Both the position numbers and the translations under genes were made by a program. The notes under the pieces were generated by a model. It made no database searches, had not been told where the DNA came from, and worked only from the letters and a program-made list of their open reading frames with translations. Shown piece by piece: positions 4,006 through 12,989 of a stretch of 64,000 nt of DNA. The first letter of the stretch is position 1; the number at the start of each line of letters is the position of its first letter. This DNA comes from Clavaria fumosa (Eukaryota > Basidiomycota > Agaricomycetes > Agaricales > Clavariaceae), in NCBI GenBank assembly GCA_951802425.1, contig OX637804.1, positions 1,674,001-1,738,000 on the forward strand, in the 5' to 3' direction.

Positions 4006-4948
4006 TCAGAACAGTGTTCCCTGTGGGAAGACCATTGGCTGACGGACTTCTGCCCTTTTTGCGGCCCCACAGAGAAGTTCCACAATGGTGAGTGCGAACG
4101 CGAACGCAGTCCCTGACGCAGGGCAAAACTTTCAGTACCATGCGAGGCAGTAGTCAGTGCTCTGATGCATCACCTGGGCCACGGCTGGGAACATTCGACA
4201 CGTCTGCAATTCATGATCATGCTCGGGAAGTTGGGATGAGATGCATACCTTGTGACGAGCTTCCCAGACACGACGACTGGTTCCTCCGAGTATTCGAAAT
4301 CTGGTGGGCCACGATTCAACTCTGAGTCAGGAAGCGTCTCCCACTTATATATCGCGCACCAACCCTTGTCGAGTCGAGACTTCACGCTCGGATGAGATGT
4401 CAGAGGCTGTCTGGGCAGCTTAGAGGTGAGAGCTGTAAGGGTGCCTGGCGGTGACGTTTTGAGTACGAATCTCAGAACTCTCAAGTTCGTCGTTACCGGC
4501 ACAGATCATGCCCACGAGCTTGTCGTGTGCAATGTATTCACGTACGAGCCTCTGTACGTGCACGGACTGAGAAATGGTTTCCGCGCCCCGCACGCCTCCA
4601 GGGATAAGCAATGCGTCGAATGTATCCTAGTAACACATCATGTACAGATGTCTTTGAGCTGAGCAAGTGTTGCGAATCGAGCGCATAACTCACGGGCCCG
4701 CAGTCATCTGGGGAAAAGTGAGTGTCGGGCACGATCTTGACGCCTCGCGAGCAGACTGCGTAGTTTGCACCCTCGGAGCCTGGGCTCTGTATCAAGGCAG
4801 AAGTACAGGCGATGCCTCCTCGAACAAGCGTGTCATACGGGATGGTACTGAATGTACGGATCAGCATACAATATGTAAGTTGTAACAAGTTGACACACAA
4901 TTCCATCTCTTCCGTTCCATCTGCAATGAGAACGAGTGCCGATGGCAT
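4006..4948 (-). CDS. DJ-1/PfpI family protein
   Basis: DJ-1/Park7-type protein of the class I glutamine amidotransferase-like fold; family members act as glyoxalase/deglycase-like or redox-sensing proteins. Reading from ATG at 4948, six exons can be joined in frame. Exon 1 (4899-4948) gives MPSALVLIADGTEEME and joins exon 2 (4694-4847) to make EMEFTIPYDTLVRGG. Exon 3 begins at 4626 with DTFDALLIPGG and ends at the nucleophile elbow GMICAG, where Cys is the expected active-site residue. The following exons give SHPSVKSRLDK, DFEYSEEPVVVSGKLVTSRGPG and TAFAFALTIVELLCG. The stop is at 4006-4008. Every junction restores the family consensus, so the gene appears intact. Its exon 1-2 region is duplicated near 12.6-13.0 kb. 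The physiological role cannot be read from sequence. Confidence 0.9.
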
Positions 4949-5034
4949 TTTCAAGGTGGAAAGGCTATTGGTGGTGTCAAAATTGTAGTGATTAGCGCGG
5001 TGTGGTCAAAAGATAGAATCGTCTCAGAACGCGG
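4677..5034. repeat. Segmental duplication, copy A (DJ-1 5' region)
   Basis: This stretch covers the start of DJ-1 intron 2, exon 2, intron 1, exon 1 and about 85 bp of upstream sequence. It recurs in the same orientation at 12632-12989. By eye I count roughly 15-18 mismatches over about 358 bp and no large indel, so the copies are about 95% identical. Similarity stops abruptly on both sides. Confidence 0.9.
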
Positions 5035-5444: not shown

Positions 5445-7727
5445 TTAACGGGCTTCGCAGGATGAATCCTGGCCCGCCCTGGCCTCTGCCACAAAGACCT
5501 CCGATGGCTTGAATCGATGGCTCCGGATGAGCCTCTCAACCTTTTTTATCACTTCTCCGGGCTCCAGAAAGGCCTTCGCTCGCGTCGCAAAGGAATGTAT
5601 CTCTTCATGCACTTTCTGTAGCGAATGCTGTTCATTGAGCTTGTATGCCTTCAACGCGAGGTGGAAGAGCCTTTGGGTCACGGGAGACGCACACCCGGAT
5701 ATCTGTCTGCGCGCCTGCATGAGGAGGAAAAGGCTCTGCATCACAATGGTGAGATCGACAATGTAGCCCATCATGCCCCGCAGAACATTCGGTCTATCAG
5801 CGGACACATGCTTGTTAATCTGTCTAGACCGCAAGCTATAAATATGAACATACGTCACTTTGAGAGCTTTGTATACCCATGCTGCGAAAACGATGCCGGC
5901 AGCAATGGGAAGTGCGAAAGGAGCGGCGGGAGGGATGAAGCCTGGCAATCACGTGTCATTGAATCTGCTCAACAAGCACAACCTACTCATAGCGCACCAG
6001 ATATAAGAGCCGCGGTGAGGGTAACTGCACCGGAAGACCTGGTCAAACCTGAGCATGGGCACCAAAAATTTCATGAATAAACGTCATACACATTCCATGT
6101 TGTTCCACTATCTTCTCCCAAAAGATCCTCCTGAAGCGTTGACAGCTCAATGGCCGCAGAGCTAAGAACCTGTATAGGAATTCGGCAGAGTTTGAGGCAC
6201 GTCTACAATACGTATGCACCTTGTCAGGATCGTAAAGACCCCAAACCCTGAGGGCGCATGAGACAGTGAAAAGATGCAAAAAAATGCAAAAGACAGCACA
6301 AACTCCACGATATCCCGGTGAACCACTCTGAGCCACCTTGCCAACGATCTTCCAGGTAAACTCGTCGACAAGCCTTGCCAATATCCTCGATGCACGATTG
6401 ACACAGAGCCGGAGACAAGTATTGAGTAAGACTTACTTCGCTTGCCAATCCTTCAGAGATGTCAGCACAATCACCAGGGACATCATGATTGATGTAACGG
6501 ACTTAATCACAGCATCAATCTTCACGTCGACGCTCTGCTGCTGAGTGATCGCCCAAACGAGTCCAACTGATTGATCGATGCACGCCTGCGTCTTCTTTAC
6601 TAACTCGTCGAGTGTATCAGTAAAACCGGGTCCCACTGCGATCAATATAATCACATTCAGTCGTACGCTTGGGACCAAATACTGGTAGCATGCAGACCTG
6701 ACACCGCCACCCACGGAACGTCCAATGTCTTCTCAAAAGGCTTGATCATCTCGTTTCGGAGCTTATCGTCTGCGAGACGGAGGAGGGACACGTCGATGGG
6801 GGATTCTTTGACTCCAATGGTCGGGCCTAGGTCATGGTAGATGTTGTCGTCGGGACTGTCGACATCGTTATCGATATCGTCGTCGATATCGCCGTACAAG
6901 TCGTTGTTGGCTGCCAGCGTGACACTTTTCGGTAGGATGCTTGTCACCAGCAGATCATACTTGGTGAATACCGCAACAATTGGAACTGGAGGGTATGTGT
7001 TATATTGGGGTAAATTAGGCATGTATTTGAACATGAATTCACTGCCGCGATTCTTGAGCTGGAGAATTTTCTCCTCGCCCACTTCGAGTAGACTTCCGCC
7101 ATATGTGGGAACCTCAATGCAAAGCCTAATCAAGTACCATCAATATACAAATGCCTAAGAGAAGATCTATCGTACCAGATTGCGTGAAGTCTGTCTTTGA
7201 GGTCGGGCTTCTTGCTACGCTCCTCGATGAATGTCTGGACAGTCTCGAAGTTACCGGCATCTGCATGAGAGAATCCTTGCGAGTCGTGCAGAATGAGGCG
7301 GGGATTCTGCTGTGAGGTGATCTCCCGCTCGATATCTGACTCGCCAGCTTTGCGACCGTGCTCCACGACCTGTAACTCAAAGGTTAAGGGAATGTGGACA
7401 TTGATATTGAGCACAGGTTGTTGCATTTCACCGTCTCATGAATCCCAAAGACCGCATTGATCAGATTAGATTTGCCGACGCCGCTCTAGAAAACGTTCAC
7501 TGTGAGTCGAACAGAGGCAAAATCGATCGTCAGATTGGGATGATACATACCCTCCCGAGGACCAGGATGCGGAACCTAAAAATACGTGAGCGAGCTACAG
7601 CGATATGCAGACGATGTGGACTCGCGAACCTGGGACAAGTCTGAAGAATCTTGTCGACGGTTGACTTGAGCTCGTCCTCGAAGCTCAAGTCACTCAGCTG
7701 CTGTTCCTCTAACGGAATGGACGACAT
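5445..7727 (-). CDS. P-loop GTPase with C-terminal membrane region (GTPase A)
   Basis: Member of a fungal group of G-domain proteins of unknown role. ATG at 7727 starts MSSIPLEEQQLSD. The G1 loop is assembled across an intron: FRILVLGR joins SGVGKSNLINAVFGI, giving GRSGVGKS. G3 is HDSQGF (about 7280) and G4 is FTKYD (about 6955), a usual variant of NKxD. An acidic insert follows (about 6830-6900, D/N-rich). The last large exon (about 5445-5945) has a hydrophobic segment PFALPIAAGIVFAAWVYKAL and then a helical region containing GYIVDLTIVMQSLFLLM, ending at a stop at 5445-5447. Exons between about 5950 and 6450 are less certain. It is head-to-head with, and paralogous to, the next gene. Membrane attachment is inferred from the hydrophobic segment. 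Confidence 0.8.
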
Positions 7728-7917
7728 CGAAAGGAAGACAAGAGGGTGCGCGTGACAAACCCCACACGGCTTGACTGGCCCGCTTCATCTCCGCAAGCGG
7801 TGAGGAACGTGCCTGACCACGATCGCATCCTCCACACCTCTTCAGCGTTTTCCCGGCAGCCGCCCATCGCACTCATCAACACCAGCCCTCCTCCTCTGCT
7901 CTGTAGATTTCATCTCT
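7728..7917. promoter_or_regulatory. Shared divergent promoter of the two GTPase genes
   Basis: Only 190 bp separate the two start codons (7727 on - and 7918 on +), so both promoters must lie within or overlap this interval. No clear TATA box was seen. Inferred from gene orientation only. Confidence 0.5.
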
Positions 7918-10900
7918 ATGGATGTTTCACCTGAAGAGATCAAGAGATTGTGTCCCCGGTTTCGCGTCTTGATTATGGGTCGGCGAAATGCTGGAAAAAC
8001 CACCATTCTTGAGAAGATGACAGGGAGTGAGGCCGGGGTTGAGCCTGAAATTCGTGATAAGGCAGGAAACTTGGTGGTATGAGCATCCATCTCCTGCCTG
8101 TACATCGGTAATAGAGCCGATGGGCACAGGATGATCCGGCACAGCTCAAGGCAGGGGTAGAGGTATGCCGGCGATGCACTGATGATAGCCTACACTTGCC
8201 ATATCGTTGATCAAACCTTAGCGTGGGATGAGCAACATTGAGTACGAAATAACGTACCCGAACAACCCACTTTTTGTCTTTCACGATTCTCGGGGAATCG
8301 AAGCTGGAGCAGAAACAGATGAAGCTAGCGAGCTTCGTATCGGGTACATTCGGGCTTTCATTGATGATCGGGCGCAGCGGGTACGGGTCAAGGATCAGCT
8401 CCATGCAATCTGGTACGAATTGGTGCAACCCGTACAGTCCTAAGGTGAAGGGTCTAATCAACACATAGGTTCTGCATGCCTATGGATAATGTAAGGGTAC
8501 CCAGTGATTCATTCGAGCTCGCCTTTTTCGAGAAGGGGACCGGTAGTGGTGAGTGGGATTTTGCACCGACTCAGATGGAAATTGTTGTCGTTATTAACTT
8601 AAGGTAGTCCCAGTGATTGCCGTGTTAACCAAGTACGAAGCTCTGATTGACAGGGTAAGAAGCATAGGAAGACCGGAGCCGGACAAAGCTGTCAAGGCAT
8701 ATTTGCGCAAGAACATTCTTGGTCCTATCAAGAAGGCTGCACATCCGCCTGCAGCCTATGTGCAAACACATCGTGAGTGCCTTTGAATCGGTGTTTTTTC
8801 TTGCTGTTTCTAAAACGAAACGTGTACAATGACATCGTTCAGACAAGGGTGTCGGTTGCGAGCTGCTAACCGAAAAGACGTACGGAACAATCAAGAACGA
8901 TACCCTTGCCACCTTTTTTGCAATGGCGCAGCAGAATTCACAGAAAGTGTCATGTGAAGAAGTATTCCGACGAGTGCTGTTCGTGCATCATATTGGTTAA
9001 TTAGTCATCATCTAACCGTTCAATTTCAAATTGCAGAAGACAATCCTTTATATCGAGACTCAAGGAGGCCAAGAAGAACATGTCCTCAACTCAACTTGTA
9101 GTGAGCGTATTGGAATTGTTACCATTTTGGAGCCATGTCAGTAGTAGGCACTGCTAAGTCTCATCATCACACTCATGGATTGTGTTTCAGCCTGTGAGTT
9201 GCTGTCCGTGCTCGTCGCTCCCATCGCATCTCACTCATGTCACCTTCATCTGTGCCTTGCTTTCAGTTTGTGAGTTGCTGTCCATGCTCATTGCTCCTAT
9301 CGCATCTTGCTCATGTTGCCTTCATTTGCGCTTCGCTTTCAGGACGTGAGTTGCTGTCCATGCTCGTCACTCCCATCGCATCTCGCTCACATCACCTTCA
9401 TCCGCGCCTCGCTTTCAGTATGTGAGTTGCTGTCCGTGCTCATTGCTCCCATCACATCTTGCTCACATCACCTTCATCCGCGCCTCGCTTTCAGTATGTG
9501 AGTTGCTGTCCATGCTCGTTACTCCCATCGCATCTCGCTCATGTCACCTTCATCTGTGCCTCGCTTTCAGTATGTGAGTTGCTGTCCATGCTCGTTACTC
9601 CCATCGCATCTCGCTCATGTCACCTTCATCTGTGCCTCGCTTTCAGTTCGTGAGTTGCTGTCCATGCTCGTCACTCCCATCGCATCTCGCTCACGTCGCC
9701 TTCATCCGCGCCTCCTTTCAGAATGTGAGTTGCTGTCTGTGCTCGTCGCTCCCATCGCATCTCGCTCATGTCACCTTCATCCGCGCCTCGCTTTCAGTAT
9801 GTGAGTTGCTGTCCATGCTCGTTACTCCCATCGCATCTCGCTCATGTCACCTTCATCTGTGCCTCGCTTTCAGTTTGTGAGTTGCTGTCCATGCTCATTG
9901 CTCCTATCGCATCTTGCTCATGTTGCCTTCATTTGCGCTTCGCTTTCAGGACGTGAGTTGCTGTCCATGCTCGTCACTCCCATCGCATCTCGCTCACGTT
10001 GCCTTCATCCGCGCCTCCTTTCAGAATGTGAGTTGCTGTCTGTGCTCGTCGCTCCCATCGCATCTCGCTCACGTCGCCTTCATCCGCGCCTCCTTTCAGA
10101 ATGTGAGTTGCTGTCTGTGCTCGTCGCTCCCATCGCATCTCGCTCACGTCACCTTCATCCGCGCCTCGCTTTCAGTATGTGAGTTGCTGTCCATGCTTGT
10201 CACTCCCATCACATCTTGCTCATGTCACCTTCATCTGTGCCTCGCTTTCAGTTCGTGAGTTGCTGTCCATGCTCGTCGCTCCCATCGCATCTCGCTCATG
10301 TCGCCTTCATCTGTGCCTCGCTTTCAGTATGTGAGTTGCTGTCCATGCTCGTCGCTCCCATCGCGTCTCGCTCACGTTGCCTTCATCTGCGCCTCGCTTT
10401 CAGGATGTGAGTTGCTGTCCATGCTCGCCGCTCCCATCGCATCTCGCTCATGTCGCCTTCATCTGCGCTTCGCTTTCAGGACGTGAGTTGCTGTCCGTGC
10501 TTGTCGCTCCCATTGCATCTTGCTCACATCACCTTCATCCGCGCCTCGCTTTCAGTATGTGAGTTGCTGTCCGTGCTCATTGCTCCCATCACATCTTGCT
10601 CACATCGCCTTCATCCGCACCTCGCTTTCAGTCTGTGAGTTGCTGTCTGTGCTTGTTGCTCCCATTGCATCTCGCTCACATCACCTTCATCCGTGCCTCA
10701 CTTTCAGTTGGTGAGTTGCTGTCTGTGCTCATTGCTCCCATTGCATCTCGCTCATGTTGCCTTCATCTGTGCCTCGCTTTCAGTATGTGAGTTGCTGTCC
10801 ATGCTCGTTGCTCCCATCGCATCTTGCTCACGTCGCCTTCATCCGTGCCTCGCTTTCAGTCTGTGAGTTGCTGTCTGTGCTTGTTGCTCCCATTGCATCT

Positions 10901-12431
10901 CGCTCACATCACCTTCATCCGTGCCTCACTTTCAGCCGGTGAGTTACTGTCTGTGCTCGTCGCTCCCATCGCGTCTCGCTCATGTTGCCTTCATCTGTGC
11001 CTCGCTTTCAGGACGTGAGTTGCTGTCTGTGCTTGTCGCTCCCATTGCATCTTGCTCACATTGCCTTCATCTGTGCCTCGCTTTCAGTTCGTGAGTTGCT
11101 GTCCATGCTCGTTGCTCCCATTGCATCTTGCTCACATTGCCTTCATCTGTGCCTCGCTTTCAGGACGTGAGTTGCTGTCTGTGCTTGTCGCTCCCATTGC
11201 ATCTTGCTCACATCGCCTTCATCTGTGCCTCGCTTTCAGTTCGTGAGTTGCTGTCCATGCTCGTTGCTCCCATTGCATCTTGCTCACATTGCCTTCATCC
11301 ACGCCTCGCTTTCAGGACGTGAGTTGCTGTCTGTGCTTGTCGCTCCCATTGCATCTTGCTCACATCGCCTTCATCTGTGCCTCGCTTTCAGTTGGTGAGT
11401 TGCTGTCCATGCTCGTTGCTCCCATTGCATCTTGCTCACGTTGCCTTCATCCACGCCTCGCTTTCAGTACGTGAGTTGCTGTCCGTGCGCTCGTCGCTCC
11501 CATTGCATCTCACTCATGTCGCCTTCATCCGCGCCTCCTTTCAGAACGTGAGTTGCTATCTGTGCTCGTCAGTCCAATTTCGTCTCACTTATGTTGCCTT
11601 GAACCTCCCTTCACTGCAGGATGTGAGCTTTCGCCCCTGTTCATCACTCTGTTCTTTCTTTTGCTTTGGCCTTCATCTATTTCCTGATCTTCACTCAGGC
11701 AGCTAGAGCTAGCATATCTGAAATTGCACCTGCAATTACTCGTTGGGTGTGTGACCTCCAGATTTCCTTGACTTTGAGCCTGAATACCCTTGATCACCGC
11801 TTCCTCACAGTTGGATTTTGGTCCTATGCGCATCCTTGATCTGAAAATTCGTGTACAGTTTGTTACCCGTAAGTTCCGCACTGACCTCTGCCGCCTTAGT
11901 AATGCTATTGTTACGCTTAGTTGCCTGCCTCTTGGGATGCTGGACATCCCACAAGTCAAAGAAGCCCTGGGAATACGTAACCCAGGCCATCAGGAAGGTG
12001 GATATTATGGAAGATCTAAGGGTACACATTGTCGACAGCGTGCAAACTGCTCTCCAGCAGTATGATATCAACTCCAAGGAGCTCTACGAGAGTCTTGTAC
12101 AGCTTGTGCTGCGAAGTGCCAATACTCTTGGCCCAGGTGCTCTTAACAGCCTCCGTTTGATATTTTTGCTAATCATGCTTATAGACGAGGCAGGGGAAGC
12201 CCAGCCTTCTTGAAGGCCATTATATACAGGACTCCTGTAAATCGGTGCGGGTTAGATGAAGGTCAGGATCTGGAATTTGCAAACCAATATGCCAATGTCA
12301 TGCGAAAACTCTGCGAAACTGATCCTAATTTAAAAGATTCCTTATTCAACTGTAGTAAGCAAATGAGCACCCGCAAGTGGATAAACCAACAGAGGAGAGA
12401 CTCCGTTCACTCTGTGCAGATCAAGATGTAA
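7918..12431 (+). CDS. P-loop GTPase interrupted by a giant intron array (GTPase B)
   Basis: Paralogue of GTPase A. ATG at 7918 starts MDVSPEEIKRLCPRFRVLIMG followed by the G1 loop GRRNAGKTT. G3 is HDSRGI (about 8285). G4 reads VLTKYE (about 8620), with Glu where Asp normally contacts guanine. The G domain continues through TEKTYGTIKNDTLATFF and MAQQNSQKVSCEE (about 8870-8960). A small exon near 9037-9100 is followed by the array of intron-like units (9101-11698). Coding resumes with an exon from 11699, then one with GPMRILDLKIRVQFVT (about 11815-11870) joining LACLLGCWTSHKSKK (about 11920), similar in place and character to the C-terminal region of GTPase A. The stop is at 12429-12431. Without the array the protein would be roughly 500 residues. 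Family membership is firm; the exon structure around the array is a model. Confidence 0.72.
9101..11698 (+). repeat. Tandem array of complete intron-like units separated by 3-nt spacers
   Basis: The core array (9194-11619) has 32 head-to-tail units, nearly all with a 76-bp period (75 at four places, 77 once). Each unit begins GTGAGT, has CTCAC or CTCAT as a good branch site about 25-30 nt before its end, and ends in a pyrimidine tract and TTTCAG. Between each CAG and the next GTGAG lie exactly three bases. With the flanking introns (9101-9190 and 11623-11698) there are 34 potential introns and 33 triplets, the first at 9191-9193 and the last at 11620-11622. Triplet counts: TAT 8, GAC 6, TTC 4, AAT 3, two each of TTT, TCT, TTG and GAT, one each of CCT, CCG, TAC and AAC. 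Splice-site bases are essentially invariant while the triplets are the most variable part. The 32nd unit (11548-11619) is diverged in its second half. Confidence 0.97.
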
Positions 12432-12631
12432 GGTAACCGCGGGAATGTGTTGCCTTGGTGGGAGGGTTGATTACTCAAATGACAGCCGGCAAGATGGTCG
12501 GTGTGACATTAAAAATATGCAGGTACAGAGGGAGAGAGCAAGAATGAGGAACTCAAAAAAGGAAATAGAGGGACTCGCCTCGCTGCTTCCTTTGGCTCCC
12601 CTTTGACGGACATTAAGCGAGTTCGGCTAAA

Positions 12632-12904
12632 ATCGAGTGCATAGCTCACGGGCCCGCTGTTATCTGGGGAAAAGTGAGTGTCGGGCACGATCTTGACGCC
12701 TCGCGAGCAGACTGCGTAATTTGCACCCTCGGAGCCTGGGCTCTGTATCAAGGCAGAAGTGCAGGCGATGCCTCCTCGAACAAGCGTGTCATACGAGATG
12801 GTACTGAATGTACGGATCAGCATACAATATGTAAGTTGTAACAAGTTGATACACAATTCCATCTCTTCCGTTCCATCTGCAATGAGAACGAGTGCCGATG
12901 GCAT
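12632..12904 (-). pseudogene. Truncated DJ-1 copy (exons 1-2 only)
   Basis: ATG at 12904 reads MPSALVLIADGTEEME and the intron 1 splice sites are kept, so exon 2 is still readable as far as TLVRGG, SPGSEGANYAVCSRGVKIV and DTHFSPD. The intron 2 donor is kept as GTGAGC, but unrelated sequence follows. Exons encoding the LLIPGG strand, the active-site Cys (GMICAG) and the C-terminal helices are absent. It cannot make a working DJ-1 fold. It may still be transcribed, because it carries about 85 bp of the original upstream region. Confidence 0.85.
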
Positions 12905-12989
12905 TATCAAGGTGGAAAGGCGATTAGTGGTGTCAAAATTGTAGTGATTGGCACGGTGTGGTCAAAGGATGGAATCGTCTCAGAACGCG
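12632..12989. repeat. Segmental duplication, copy B
   Basis: Second copy of the DJ-1 5' region, in the same orientation as copy A at 4677-5034. Similarity begins inside the equivalent of DJ-1 intron 2 and ends upstream of the start codon, about 15 bp before the ENP2 stop codon. The two copies bracket the GTPase gene pair. Confidence 0.9.

What the first reader, a model, noticed from the sequence alone, without database searches (positions are those of the whole stretch)
9101..11698. A tandem array of about 32 self-sufficient introns separated by single triplets
Seen directly: each ~76-bp unit carries its own GTGAGT donor, CTCAC/CTCAT branch site, pyrimidine tract and TTTCAG acceptor, and successive units are spaced by exactly 3 nt. 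With the flanking introns there are 34 potential introns. Splice-site bases are nearly invariant across units while the triplets are the most variable part (12 different triplets in 33 positions). Neutral tandem repeats would let splice sites drift, so either selection or very recent homogenisation keeps them. If units are removed one by one, the gene has 33 consecutive 3-nt exons, which I do not know from any described gene. If removed as one ~2.6-kb block, the cell must ignore dozens of perfect decoy sites.
Basis: partly seen in the sequence, partly recalled or inferred. Interest (0 to 1): 0.95.

Follow-up and report, generated by a model that had tools for sequence, protein, structure and literature searches.

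The report
Mushroom gene with one-codon exons
A mushroom GTPase gene appears to contain 33 exons of one codon each, separated by near-identical introns, and comparison with relatives suggests that they are joined into a fast-changing stretch of protein, a design otherwise reported from a truffle gene family.

Summary
The array is real: 32 head-to-tail introns (72-74 nt, GT...AG) between 33 triplets, window 9191-11622, inside a small GTPase gene of an agaricomycete.

Splice-site invariance is not evidence of selection: non-CpG body columns are nearly as invariant. The informative signal is the reverse: triplets differ by transversions that the bodies lack.

Two paralogues on another contig have the same layout with a much-changed unit, 33 and 32 triplets. 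Two more arrays, with a unit of no detectable similarity, lie on C2; the one examined leads into coiled-coil exons. None of 98 GTPase triplets is a stop. Ten transcript-like relatives carry 20 or more variable residues at the same place.

Best reading: introns are removed one by one and the triplets are translated. No RNA of this strain was available. Codon-sized microexons are already reported for Tuber melanosporum NLR genes, so this is a new variant of a known kind in other gene families and another phylum.

The parts
7918..8978 (+). G-domain part of the gene: exons 7918-8076, 8130-8162, 8222-8412, 8469-8548, 8614-8772, 8843-8978 (P-loop GRRNAGKTT; HDSRG and TKYE by eye)
   Evidence: Spliced model translates without internal stop and aligns with P0003, 191 of 330 columns identical; passes the Pfam cut-off for MMR_HSR1, 25.4 vs 21.9 bits
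9037..9136 (+). Last ordinary exon before the array, ends ...ELLPFWSH, phase 0
   Evidence: Aligns with ...KFLPFWNL of P0003
9137..9190 (+). First intron of the chain, 54 nt, GTCAGT...CAG, not like the unit (by eye)
9191..11622 (+). 33 three-nucleotide exons (first 9191-9193, last 11620-11622) and the 32 introns between them; phase-0 reading PFDYYYFNYFDNNYFYDDYSLYSPDFDFDLYND
9194..11544 (+). 31 closely alike introns of the tandem unit with the triplets between them
11548..11619 (+). Diverged 3' edge intron of the array; keeps GTGAGT, CAG and the 3-nt spacing
11623..11698 (+). Last intron, 76 nt, GTGAGC...CAG
11699..12213 (+). C-terminal exons 11699-11746, 11811-11868, 11921-12136, 12185-12213 (AARASISEIAPAITRW... 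; TGA at 12211-12213)
   Evidence: In frame with the triplets; LACLLGCWTSHKSKKPW aligns with FICVLGCWTSKESREPW of P0002; stop read

Best explanation
The array is a chain of single-codon exons inside a GTPase gene. Each 72-74-nt unit is an ordinary short intron, removed by itself, and the 33 triplets are joined and translated in phase 0 into a variable tract of about 33 residues between the G domain and the C-terminal helices. The chain grew by tandem duplication of 'intron plus codon': any gain, loss or skip of whole units leaves the reading frame intact, so length and sequence can change freely. The codons then diversified much faster than the introns around them, most simply by diversifying selection on the residues. 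Shown: anatomy, phase, recurrence in paralogues and in a second gene family, excess variation in triplets. Inferred: splicing and translation in this strain, selection as the cause, and any role of the tract in recognition or at membranes.
For: (1) The layout recurs. Two paralogues on C6 (L023, L024) have 33 and 32 triplets between the WFPHTW motif and the C-terminal exons. Their unit is much changed from the window's (74% global identity; 1 of 1000 shuffles that keep the splice signals reaches this, so distant common origin is possible). The C2 unit shows no detectable similarity to either. The introns after the first micro-exons in L023 (after RE, TGG, GAA) are not more alike each other than shuffles are, yet those exons too are 6, 3 and 3 nt.
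(2) Phase. Flanking exons are phase 0 on both sides; the model has 43 GT-AG introns and one open frame of 435 aa, 402 without the tract.
(3) Stops. 0 of 98 triplets; shuffling each triplet position gives 5.6 expected, P(0)=0.0009 for all copies (not independent), 2.5 and P=0.04 for distinct triplets. In the C6 arrays CpG at triplet positions 1-2 is seen as CG 4, CA 5, TG 0 (TG would give TGA) against 131 TG: 122 CA in the bodies, Fisher p=0.028 (28 of 32 and 25 of 31 introns).
(4) Triplets are hypervariable. Mean transversion diversity, triplet vs body: 0.375 vs 0.000 (window), 0.466 vs 0.022 (L023), 0.450 vs 0.030 (L024); no 3-column body window reaches the triplet value in any of the three. 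In L023 six introns identical over 73 nt are followed by four different triplets.
(5) Transcript-like relatives. Of the 28 proteins from short-contig sources (27 JGI, 1 lgn) among those listed by the three protein searches, 20 reach the PFW/FPH motif: 10 then carry 20 or more residues of variable sequence (P0003, P0006, P0008, P0081, P0084, P0086, P0136, P0181, P0202, P0206), 6 have at most 10 residues and then a V-S or V-C run as if reading into an intron, 4 are unclear. P0129 (ANFEYD), P0136 (TNAEYD) and P0123 (VQWNYS) match the order of the L024 exons CGGAAG|TGG|GAA|TAT|GAT = RK-W-E-Y-D.
(6) The larger C2 array: its listed triplets (rich in A, Q, E, R) fit the coiled-coil composition of the ordinary phase-0 exons that follow.
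Against: No RNA of this strain was available. That the JGI contigs are cDNA is inferred from uninterrupted ORFs across positions that are introns here; neither their DNA nor their genomic loci were seen, and for P0081, P0084 and P0086 the limits of the tract are unclear. Frame +1 of the strung triplets also has no stop (0 of 95; frame +2 has 10 of 95), so absence of stops does not by itself fix the frame. In the C2 arrays 0 of 83 listed triplets is a stop, but shuffles expect few (P(0) 0.51 and 0.23). Gene models from sequenced genomes (P0189, P0216, P0222) lack the tract, which true skipping would also produce. Two of the five family loci found (L025 and the window's minus-strand neighbour) have no tandem array. 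Some chain introns have weak donors: GTGTGT at L023 3248 and 3480 and L024 4444, GTTTGT at L024 4144, GTGGGT at L024 5216. For C2 the 3-nt spacing was part of the search pattern, and several pairs of units in the gaps were not read.
Confidence: 0.77

Rival explanations
1. The array is a minisatellite inside one 2.56-kb intron (9137-11698) that is removed as a block or through internal junctions; the triplets never reach mRNA.
For: Removal as a block also keeps the frame. Several gene models of relatives have no tract: P0189, P0216, P0222.
Against: Triplets, not bodies, carry the transversions in three arrays; the layout recurs with much-changed or dissimilar units; transcript-like relatives carry a tract there. 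The nine ordinary introns of this gene outside the chain are 48-70 nt.
Confidence: 0.12
2. Micro-exons are spliced and translated, but the tract is neutral filler: the unit is frame-neutral and costs little, so chains ratchet up by duplication without a function.
For: Frame neutrality follows from the anatomy; residues differ widely between paralogues (PFDYYY..., WEYSSK..., WEYDSS...).
Against: Neutral triplets should vary no more than neutral intron bodies; in transversions they vary about 21 and 15 times more in L023 and L024, and bodies have none in the window. Chain length is alike in the three GTPase genes (33, 33, 32 triplets), though two of them are close paralogues.
Confidence: 0.25
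3. Triplet diversity is original sequence and the introns are what was copied: intron-precise homogenisation (for example through reverse splicing or intron cDNA) overwrites GT...AG bodies and leaves codons alone.
For: Identical bodies sit between different triplets (L023: of 20 identical-body pairs 3 share the left and 3 the right triplet).
Against: In the window identical bodies share the left triplet in 6 of 6 pairs (right in 1 of 6), as expected if codon and following intron are duplicated together as DNA. No enzyme for such copying is identified.
Confidence: 0.1
4. The units are introner-like mobile introns that happen to have inserted in tandem.
For: Near-identical introns with complete splice signals.
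Against: The units are confined to their loci: window unit 23 matches, all in the array, control 0; C6 unit 61 matches, 55 in the two C6 arrays and 6 elsewhere at 2 mismatches, control 2.
Confidence: 0.03

Closest known systems
Codon-sized microexons of Tuber melanosporum NACHT-ANK (nank) NLR genes (Iotti et al. 2012; seen only through passages of PMC4986451, PMC3689799 and PMC10197012)
   Same: Fungal nucleotide-binding protein family with tens of 3-bp exons, proposed as a diversification device
   Different: Ascomycete NACHT-ANK genes versus basidiomycete G-domain and coiled-coil genes; here the introns are near-identical tandem copies (whether that holds in Tuber I could not see); alternative splicing was not testable here
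WD/TPR/ANK repeats of fungal NLRs such as HET-D (PMC4986451, passages)
   Same: Near-identical tandem units with a few hypervariable codons under diversifying selection
   Different: There the repeat itself is translated; here the repeat is an intron and one codon per unit would be
SNHG14 tandem introns with SNORD116/SNORD115 (PMC11608373, abstract)
   Same: 29 and 48 consecutive tandem introns in one gene
   Different: Those introns yield snoRNAs; no Rfam match up to E=1 and no unusual fold in three units here
Introner-like elements (PMC9860276, passages; PMC4457414, search listing)
   Same: Families of near-identical introns
   Different: Introners are spread over many genes; these units are confined to their loci
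Stwintrons (PMC5639578, one passage)
   Same: Close-packed fungal introns; the passage mentions two exons of 3 nt in duplicated lipS genes of Dactylellina
   Different: No intron here interrupts a splice signal of another; each is complete

Membership tests
Codon-sized microexon genes (Tuber nank type) | Tens of exons of 3 nt in one gene | tested here: met
   33 consecutive 3-nt intervals between complete introns, phase 0; their use as exons is inferred
Codon-sized microexon genes (Tuber nank type) | NACHT-ANK (NLR) protein | tested here: not met
   Window protein: MMR_HSR1 above cut-off, no NACHT or ANK up to E=0.1; same for five homologues, one of which has a weak sub-threshold nSTAND_NTPase5 hit, E=0.079. 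Works like it, not filed as a member
Codon-sized microexon genes (Tuber nank type) | Alternative splicing of the microexons | not testable with these tools
   No RNA data for this strain
Introner-like elements | Dispersed copies in many genes | tested here: not met
Introner-like elements | Target-site duplications or terminal inverted repeats | not tested
   No dispersed insertions to compare; by PMC9860276 (passages) not all families have them
Stwintrons | One intron interrupts a splice element of another | tested here: not met
   All 32 introns have complete donor and acceptor and lie 3 nt apart
Recursive splicing with zero-length exons (definition recalled) | Acceptor directly abuts a donor (AG/GT) | tested here: not met
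   3 nt between AG and GT at all 33 junctions
Neutral minisatellite | Variation spread evenly over the unit | tested here: not met
   Transversions concentrated in the triplet in three arrays
Microexon (30 nt or less, present in mature mRNA) | Inclusion in mRNA | tested here: inconclusive
   Only homologous transcript-like proteins, no RNA of this strain

The most novel reading that the evidence does not exclude
One-codon exons are a codon-by-codon diversity generator used repeatedly in agaricomycete genomes: recombination between near-identical introns adds, drops and shuffles single codons, any donor can be joined to any later acceptor in frame, and the products are families of hypervariable, partly helical tracts in membrane-type GTPases and coiled-coil proteins that serve non-self recognition. 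It evolved separately from, and parallels, the truffle NLR case.
Probability: 0.3. Interest if true: 0.92.

Novelty: new variant of a known kind. Interest (0 to 1): 0.84.

Why it matters
If the chain is spliced as inferred, a spliceosome here joins more than thirty consecutive 3-nt exons, where neighbouring acceptor and donor can hardly be bound at once; that makes intron definition and the order of splicing directly testable. Evolution of protein sequence one codon per exon, with introns as the recombination substrate, would be a second route to hypervariable regions like those of fungal NLRs. Published gene models of relatives seem to miss or misread the region, so the design may be commoner than annotated.

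Tried and rejected
Led nowhere: Pfam on four single ORFs near the array (0 families each). GTAAGT chains: only repeats on C3 and isolated places. Rfam scan of 8900-11900: 0 matches up to E=1. RNA folding of three units: z 0.10 to 0.39. Foldseek with the P0202 model: weak likeness to dynamin-like, IRG and EngB GTPases (largest TM by query length among rows shown 0.32), so no function is claimed from it. Of the papers found for microexon plus Agaricomycetes, two only name a read-mapping option and the third, PMC4986451, led to the Tuber precedent; one search gave nothing on fungi that bears on this. Iotti 2012 is not held.

Rejected or corrected: my notebook statement that arrays occur only at C11 and C6 was wrong; searches show two on C2. 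The first intron 9101-9190 was dropped after the homologues showed the LPFW motif. I first called the C6 and window units unrelated; one search shows a similarity that 1 of 1000 signal-keeping shuffles reaches, so I now say 'much changed'; confidence was lowered from 0.78 to 0.77 for that. The left-right asymmetry of triplets around identical bodies in the window (6/6 vs 1/6) stays unexplained.

Rows left out: one search used 30 of 32, 29 of 32 and 26 of 31 introns; one search used 31 of 32, 28 of 32 and 25 of 31 for the CpG counts; one search used the triplets that the patterns listed (52 and 31), not the whole C2 arrays. Protein searches listed the best 120 of 228, all 53 and the best 120 of 1165.
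Full report
What is there. The window carries, at 9191-11622 on the + strand, 33 triplets separated by 32 introns of 72-74 nt; each of the 32 has GTGAGT at its 5' end, CAG at its 3' end and a CTNAY motif 28-29 nt before the end. One 54-nt intron precedes the chain (9137-9190) and one of 76 nt follows it (11623-11698). The first 22 nt of the unit match 23 places in the 48.8-Mb, 17-contig genome at up to 2 mismatches, all inside this array.

The gene. The exons on both sides belong to a small G-domain protein family of Agaricomycetes; named relatives include Russula, Gymnopus, Mycena, Stereum, Lactifluus and Suillus. The model 7918-12213 has 43 GT-AG introns and an open frame of 435 residues, 402 without the triplets; P0003 aligns with 191 of 330 columns identical, and the protein passes the Pfam cut-off for MMR_HSR1 (25.4 vs 21.9 bits). 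Both flanking exons are in phase 0, so the triplets read as whole codons: PFDYYYFNYFDNNYFYDDYSLYSPDFDFDLYND.

Selection at splice sites? Not shown. Bodies vary almost only at CpG-derived dinucleotides. Non-CpG body columns have a mean pairwise diversity of 0.010, and none of the 73 body columns has a transversion (30 of 32 introns). The donor and acceptor contain no CpG, so their invariance needs no selection; the copies are young apart from CpG decay.

Triplets are different. In the same alignment the three triplet columns have a mean transversion diversity of 0.375. The two C6 arrays give 0.466 against 0.022 and 0.450 against 0.030, and in none of the three arrays does a 3-column window of the body reach the triplet value (29 of 32 and 26 of 31 introns). 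In L023 one 73-nt body occurs six times without a difference, followed by CGA, TCT, TTT, TTT, CGA, GAA. An evenly mutating repeat should not do this. Diversifying selection on translated codons is the simplest cause; a copying process that renews introns but spares codons is less likely.

The layout recurs. Protein searches of the genome (which give lower bounds) found five family loci. Two on C6, 94.3% alike without a gap over 1,552 bp upstream of their arrays, carry arrays of another unit with 33 and 32 triplets. The C6 unit is 74% identical to the window unit in a global alignment, a value that 1 of 1000 shuffles keeping the splice signals reaches, so the two may share a distant origin. Both C6 chains begin with a 6-nt exon (CGGGAG in L023, CGGAAG in L024) and single codons TGG, GAA, TAT, in L024 also GAT. 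The three introns between these in L023 are no more alike each other than shuffles are, so the 3-nt spacing there is not the register of one tandem repeat. In L024 intron lengths run from 61 to 77 nt while every spacer in the chain is 3 nt. The other two family loci, L025 and the window's minus-strand neighbour, show no tandem array.

A second gene family. Patterns with donors GTATGT and GTACGT uncovered two more arrays on C2, minus strand, period 71; that unit is no more like the other two than shuffles are. The larger follows an ATG with single codons GCA, GAG, ATA, ATT, AAT, TGG, TTG, GAA between introns (L086, read by eye; whether ATG is itself a 3-nt exon or ends a longer first exon is open) and runs into ordinary phase-0 exons VKQDLQIEEKRKGLEQKL, AEYERDMQKLKGEHEKLK, AKYAQDMEQLKGEHEKLK, a coiled coil by composition. 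Its 52 listed triplets are rich in A, Q, E and R; 31 are listed for the smaller array, whose flanks I did not see; none of the 83 is a stop, but shuffles expect few (P(0) 0.51 and 0.23). A pattern for TAA, TAG, TGA or TGG triplets in one acceptor-donor context had no exact match. The 3-nt spacing was part of these patterns, and several stretches of two units were not matched.

Stops. In the three GTPase arrays 0 of 98 triplets is a stop, where column shuffles expect 5.6 (P=0.0009, copies not independent) or 2.5 for distinct triplets (P=0.04). Against this, frame +1 of the strung triplets is also free of stops (0 of 95), and frame +2 has 10 of 95. In the C6 arrays CpG at triplet positions 1-2 is seen as CG 4, CA 5, TG 0, while bodies show 131 TG to 122 CA (Fisher p=0.028); TG would give TGA.

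Relatives that look like RNA. The protein searches list relatives from short contigs (JGI, one lgn), many with ORFs that run uninterrupted through the G domain, which has introns here; I take them for transcripts (inference). Of 28 such proteins 20 reach the motif before the tract. Ten then carry 20 or more residues of variable sequence, such as P0202 (IYRSREGELHSLLYHLEYHHREEEEYHHHHHYLEYEEYL), P0206 (ARYYYDDVRDLDVLDLLRDLDVLLLLKREKLDR) and P0136 (TNAEYDLDPRPPDRLHRPRRDPRPLRRDPLL). Six have at most 10 residues and then a V-S or V-C run like a read-through intron; four are unclear; eight do not reach the motif. P0129, P0136 and P0123 have ANFEYD, TNAEYD and VQWNYS where L024 has RK-W-E-Y-D. Genome-derived models such as P0189, P0216 and P0222 lack the tract, and P0015 holds a repeated peptide that looks like translated intron. 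In Russula emetica P0046 the model reads PFWNL-I-VSCYLC...ALTQ-Y-VTCHLC, as if one codon sat between two unspliced introns.

How it would work. Short fungal introns are thought to be recognised as introns, not across exons (general knowledge). If each is removed in order, every next donor adjoins a long ligated exon, so 3-nt exons need not be impossible. Any skipped set of whole units keeps the frame. AlphaFold models the tract of P0202 as mostly helical with low to moderate confidence (residues 301-350, block pLDDT 49-73). The model is weakly like dynamin-like, IRG and EngB GTPases. A role in recognition or at membranes is a guess.

What is known. [quoted passage not shown] I saw passages of these three papers, not the original. 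[quoted passage not shown] In the listings of my ten literature searches I saw no report of such arrays in basidiomycetes or in G-domain or coiled-coil genes; most subscription journals are missing from that library. Hence: new variant of a known kind.

Noticed in passing
G000:C2:3649185-3654113 and C2:3792570-3796427 (minus strand); L086, L087: Two further tandem intron/one-codon arrays with a third 68+3-nt unit; the larger begins directly after a start codon and runs into coiled-coil exons, so it does not look like a GTPase gene.
   Followed up: partly
L023 3170-5586 and L024 4066-6413 (C6): Tandem paralogues 94% alike and gap-free over 1,552 bp upstream, but with arrays rebuilt in unit order, triplets and intron lengths; L024 has one extra 65-nt intron plus GAT that L023 lacks.
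   Followed up: partly
window 9194-11544: In all 6 pairs of identical intron bodies the triplet to the left is the same, but the triplet to the right in only 1 of 6.
   Followed up: no
window 4675-5033 and 12631-12989: 359-bp direct duplication, 95.8% identical, inside two similar minus-strand ORFs with MPSALVLIADGTEE (DJ-1/PfpI-like by recall; Pfam gave 0 families for the raw ORFs), on either side of the two GTPase genes.
   Followed up: no
window 5445-7760, minus strand: Divergent neighbour of the array gene, another G-domain family member, without a TRF array.
   Followed up: no
P0015, P0046, P0002, P0014, P0122: Gene models of Russula, Gymnopus and Stereum relatives contain repeated or intron-like peptide at the array position, so public annotation of this family is probably wrong there.
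   Followed up: no
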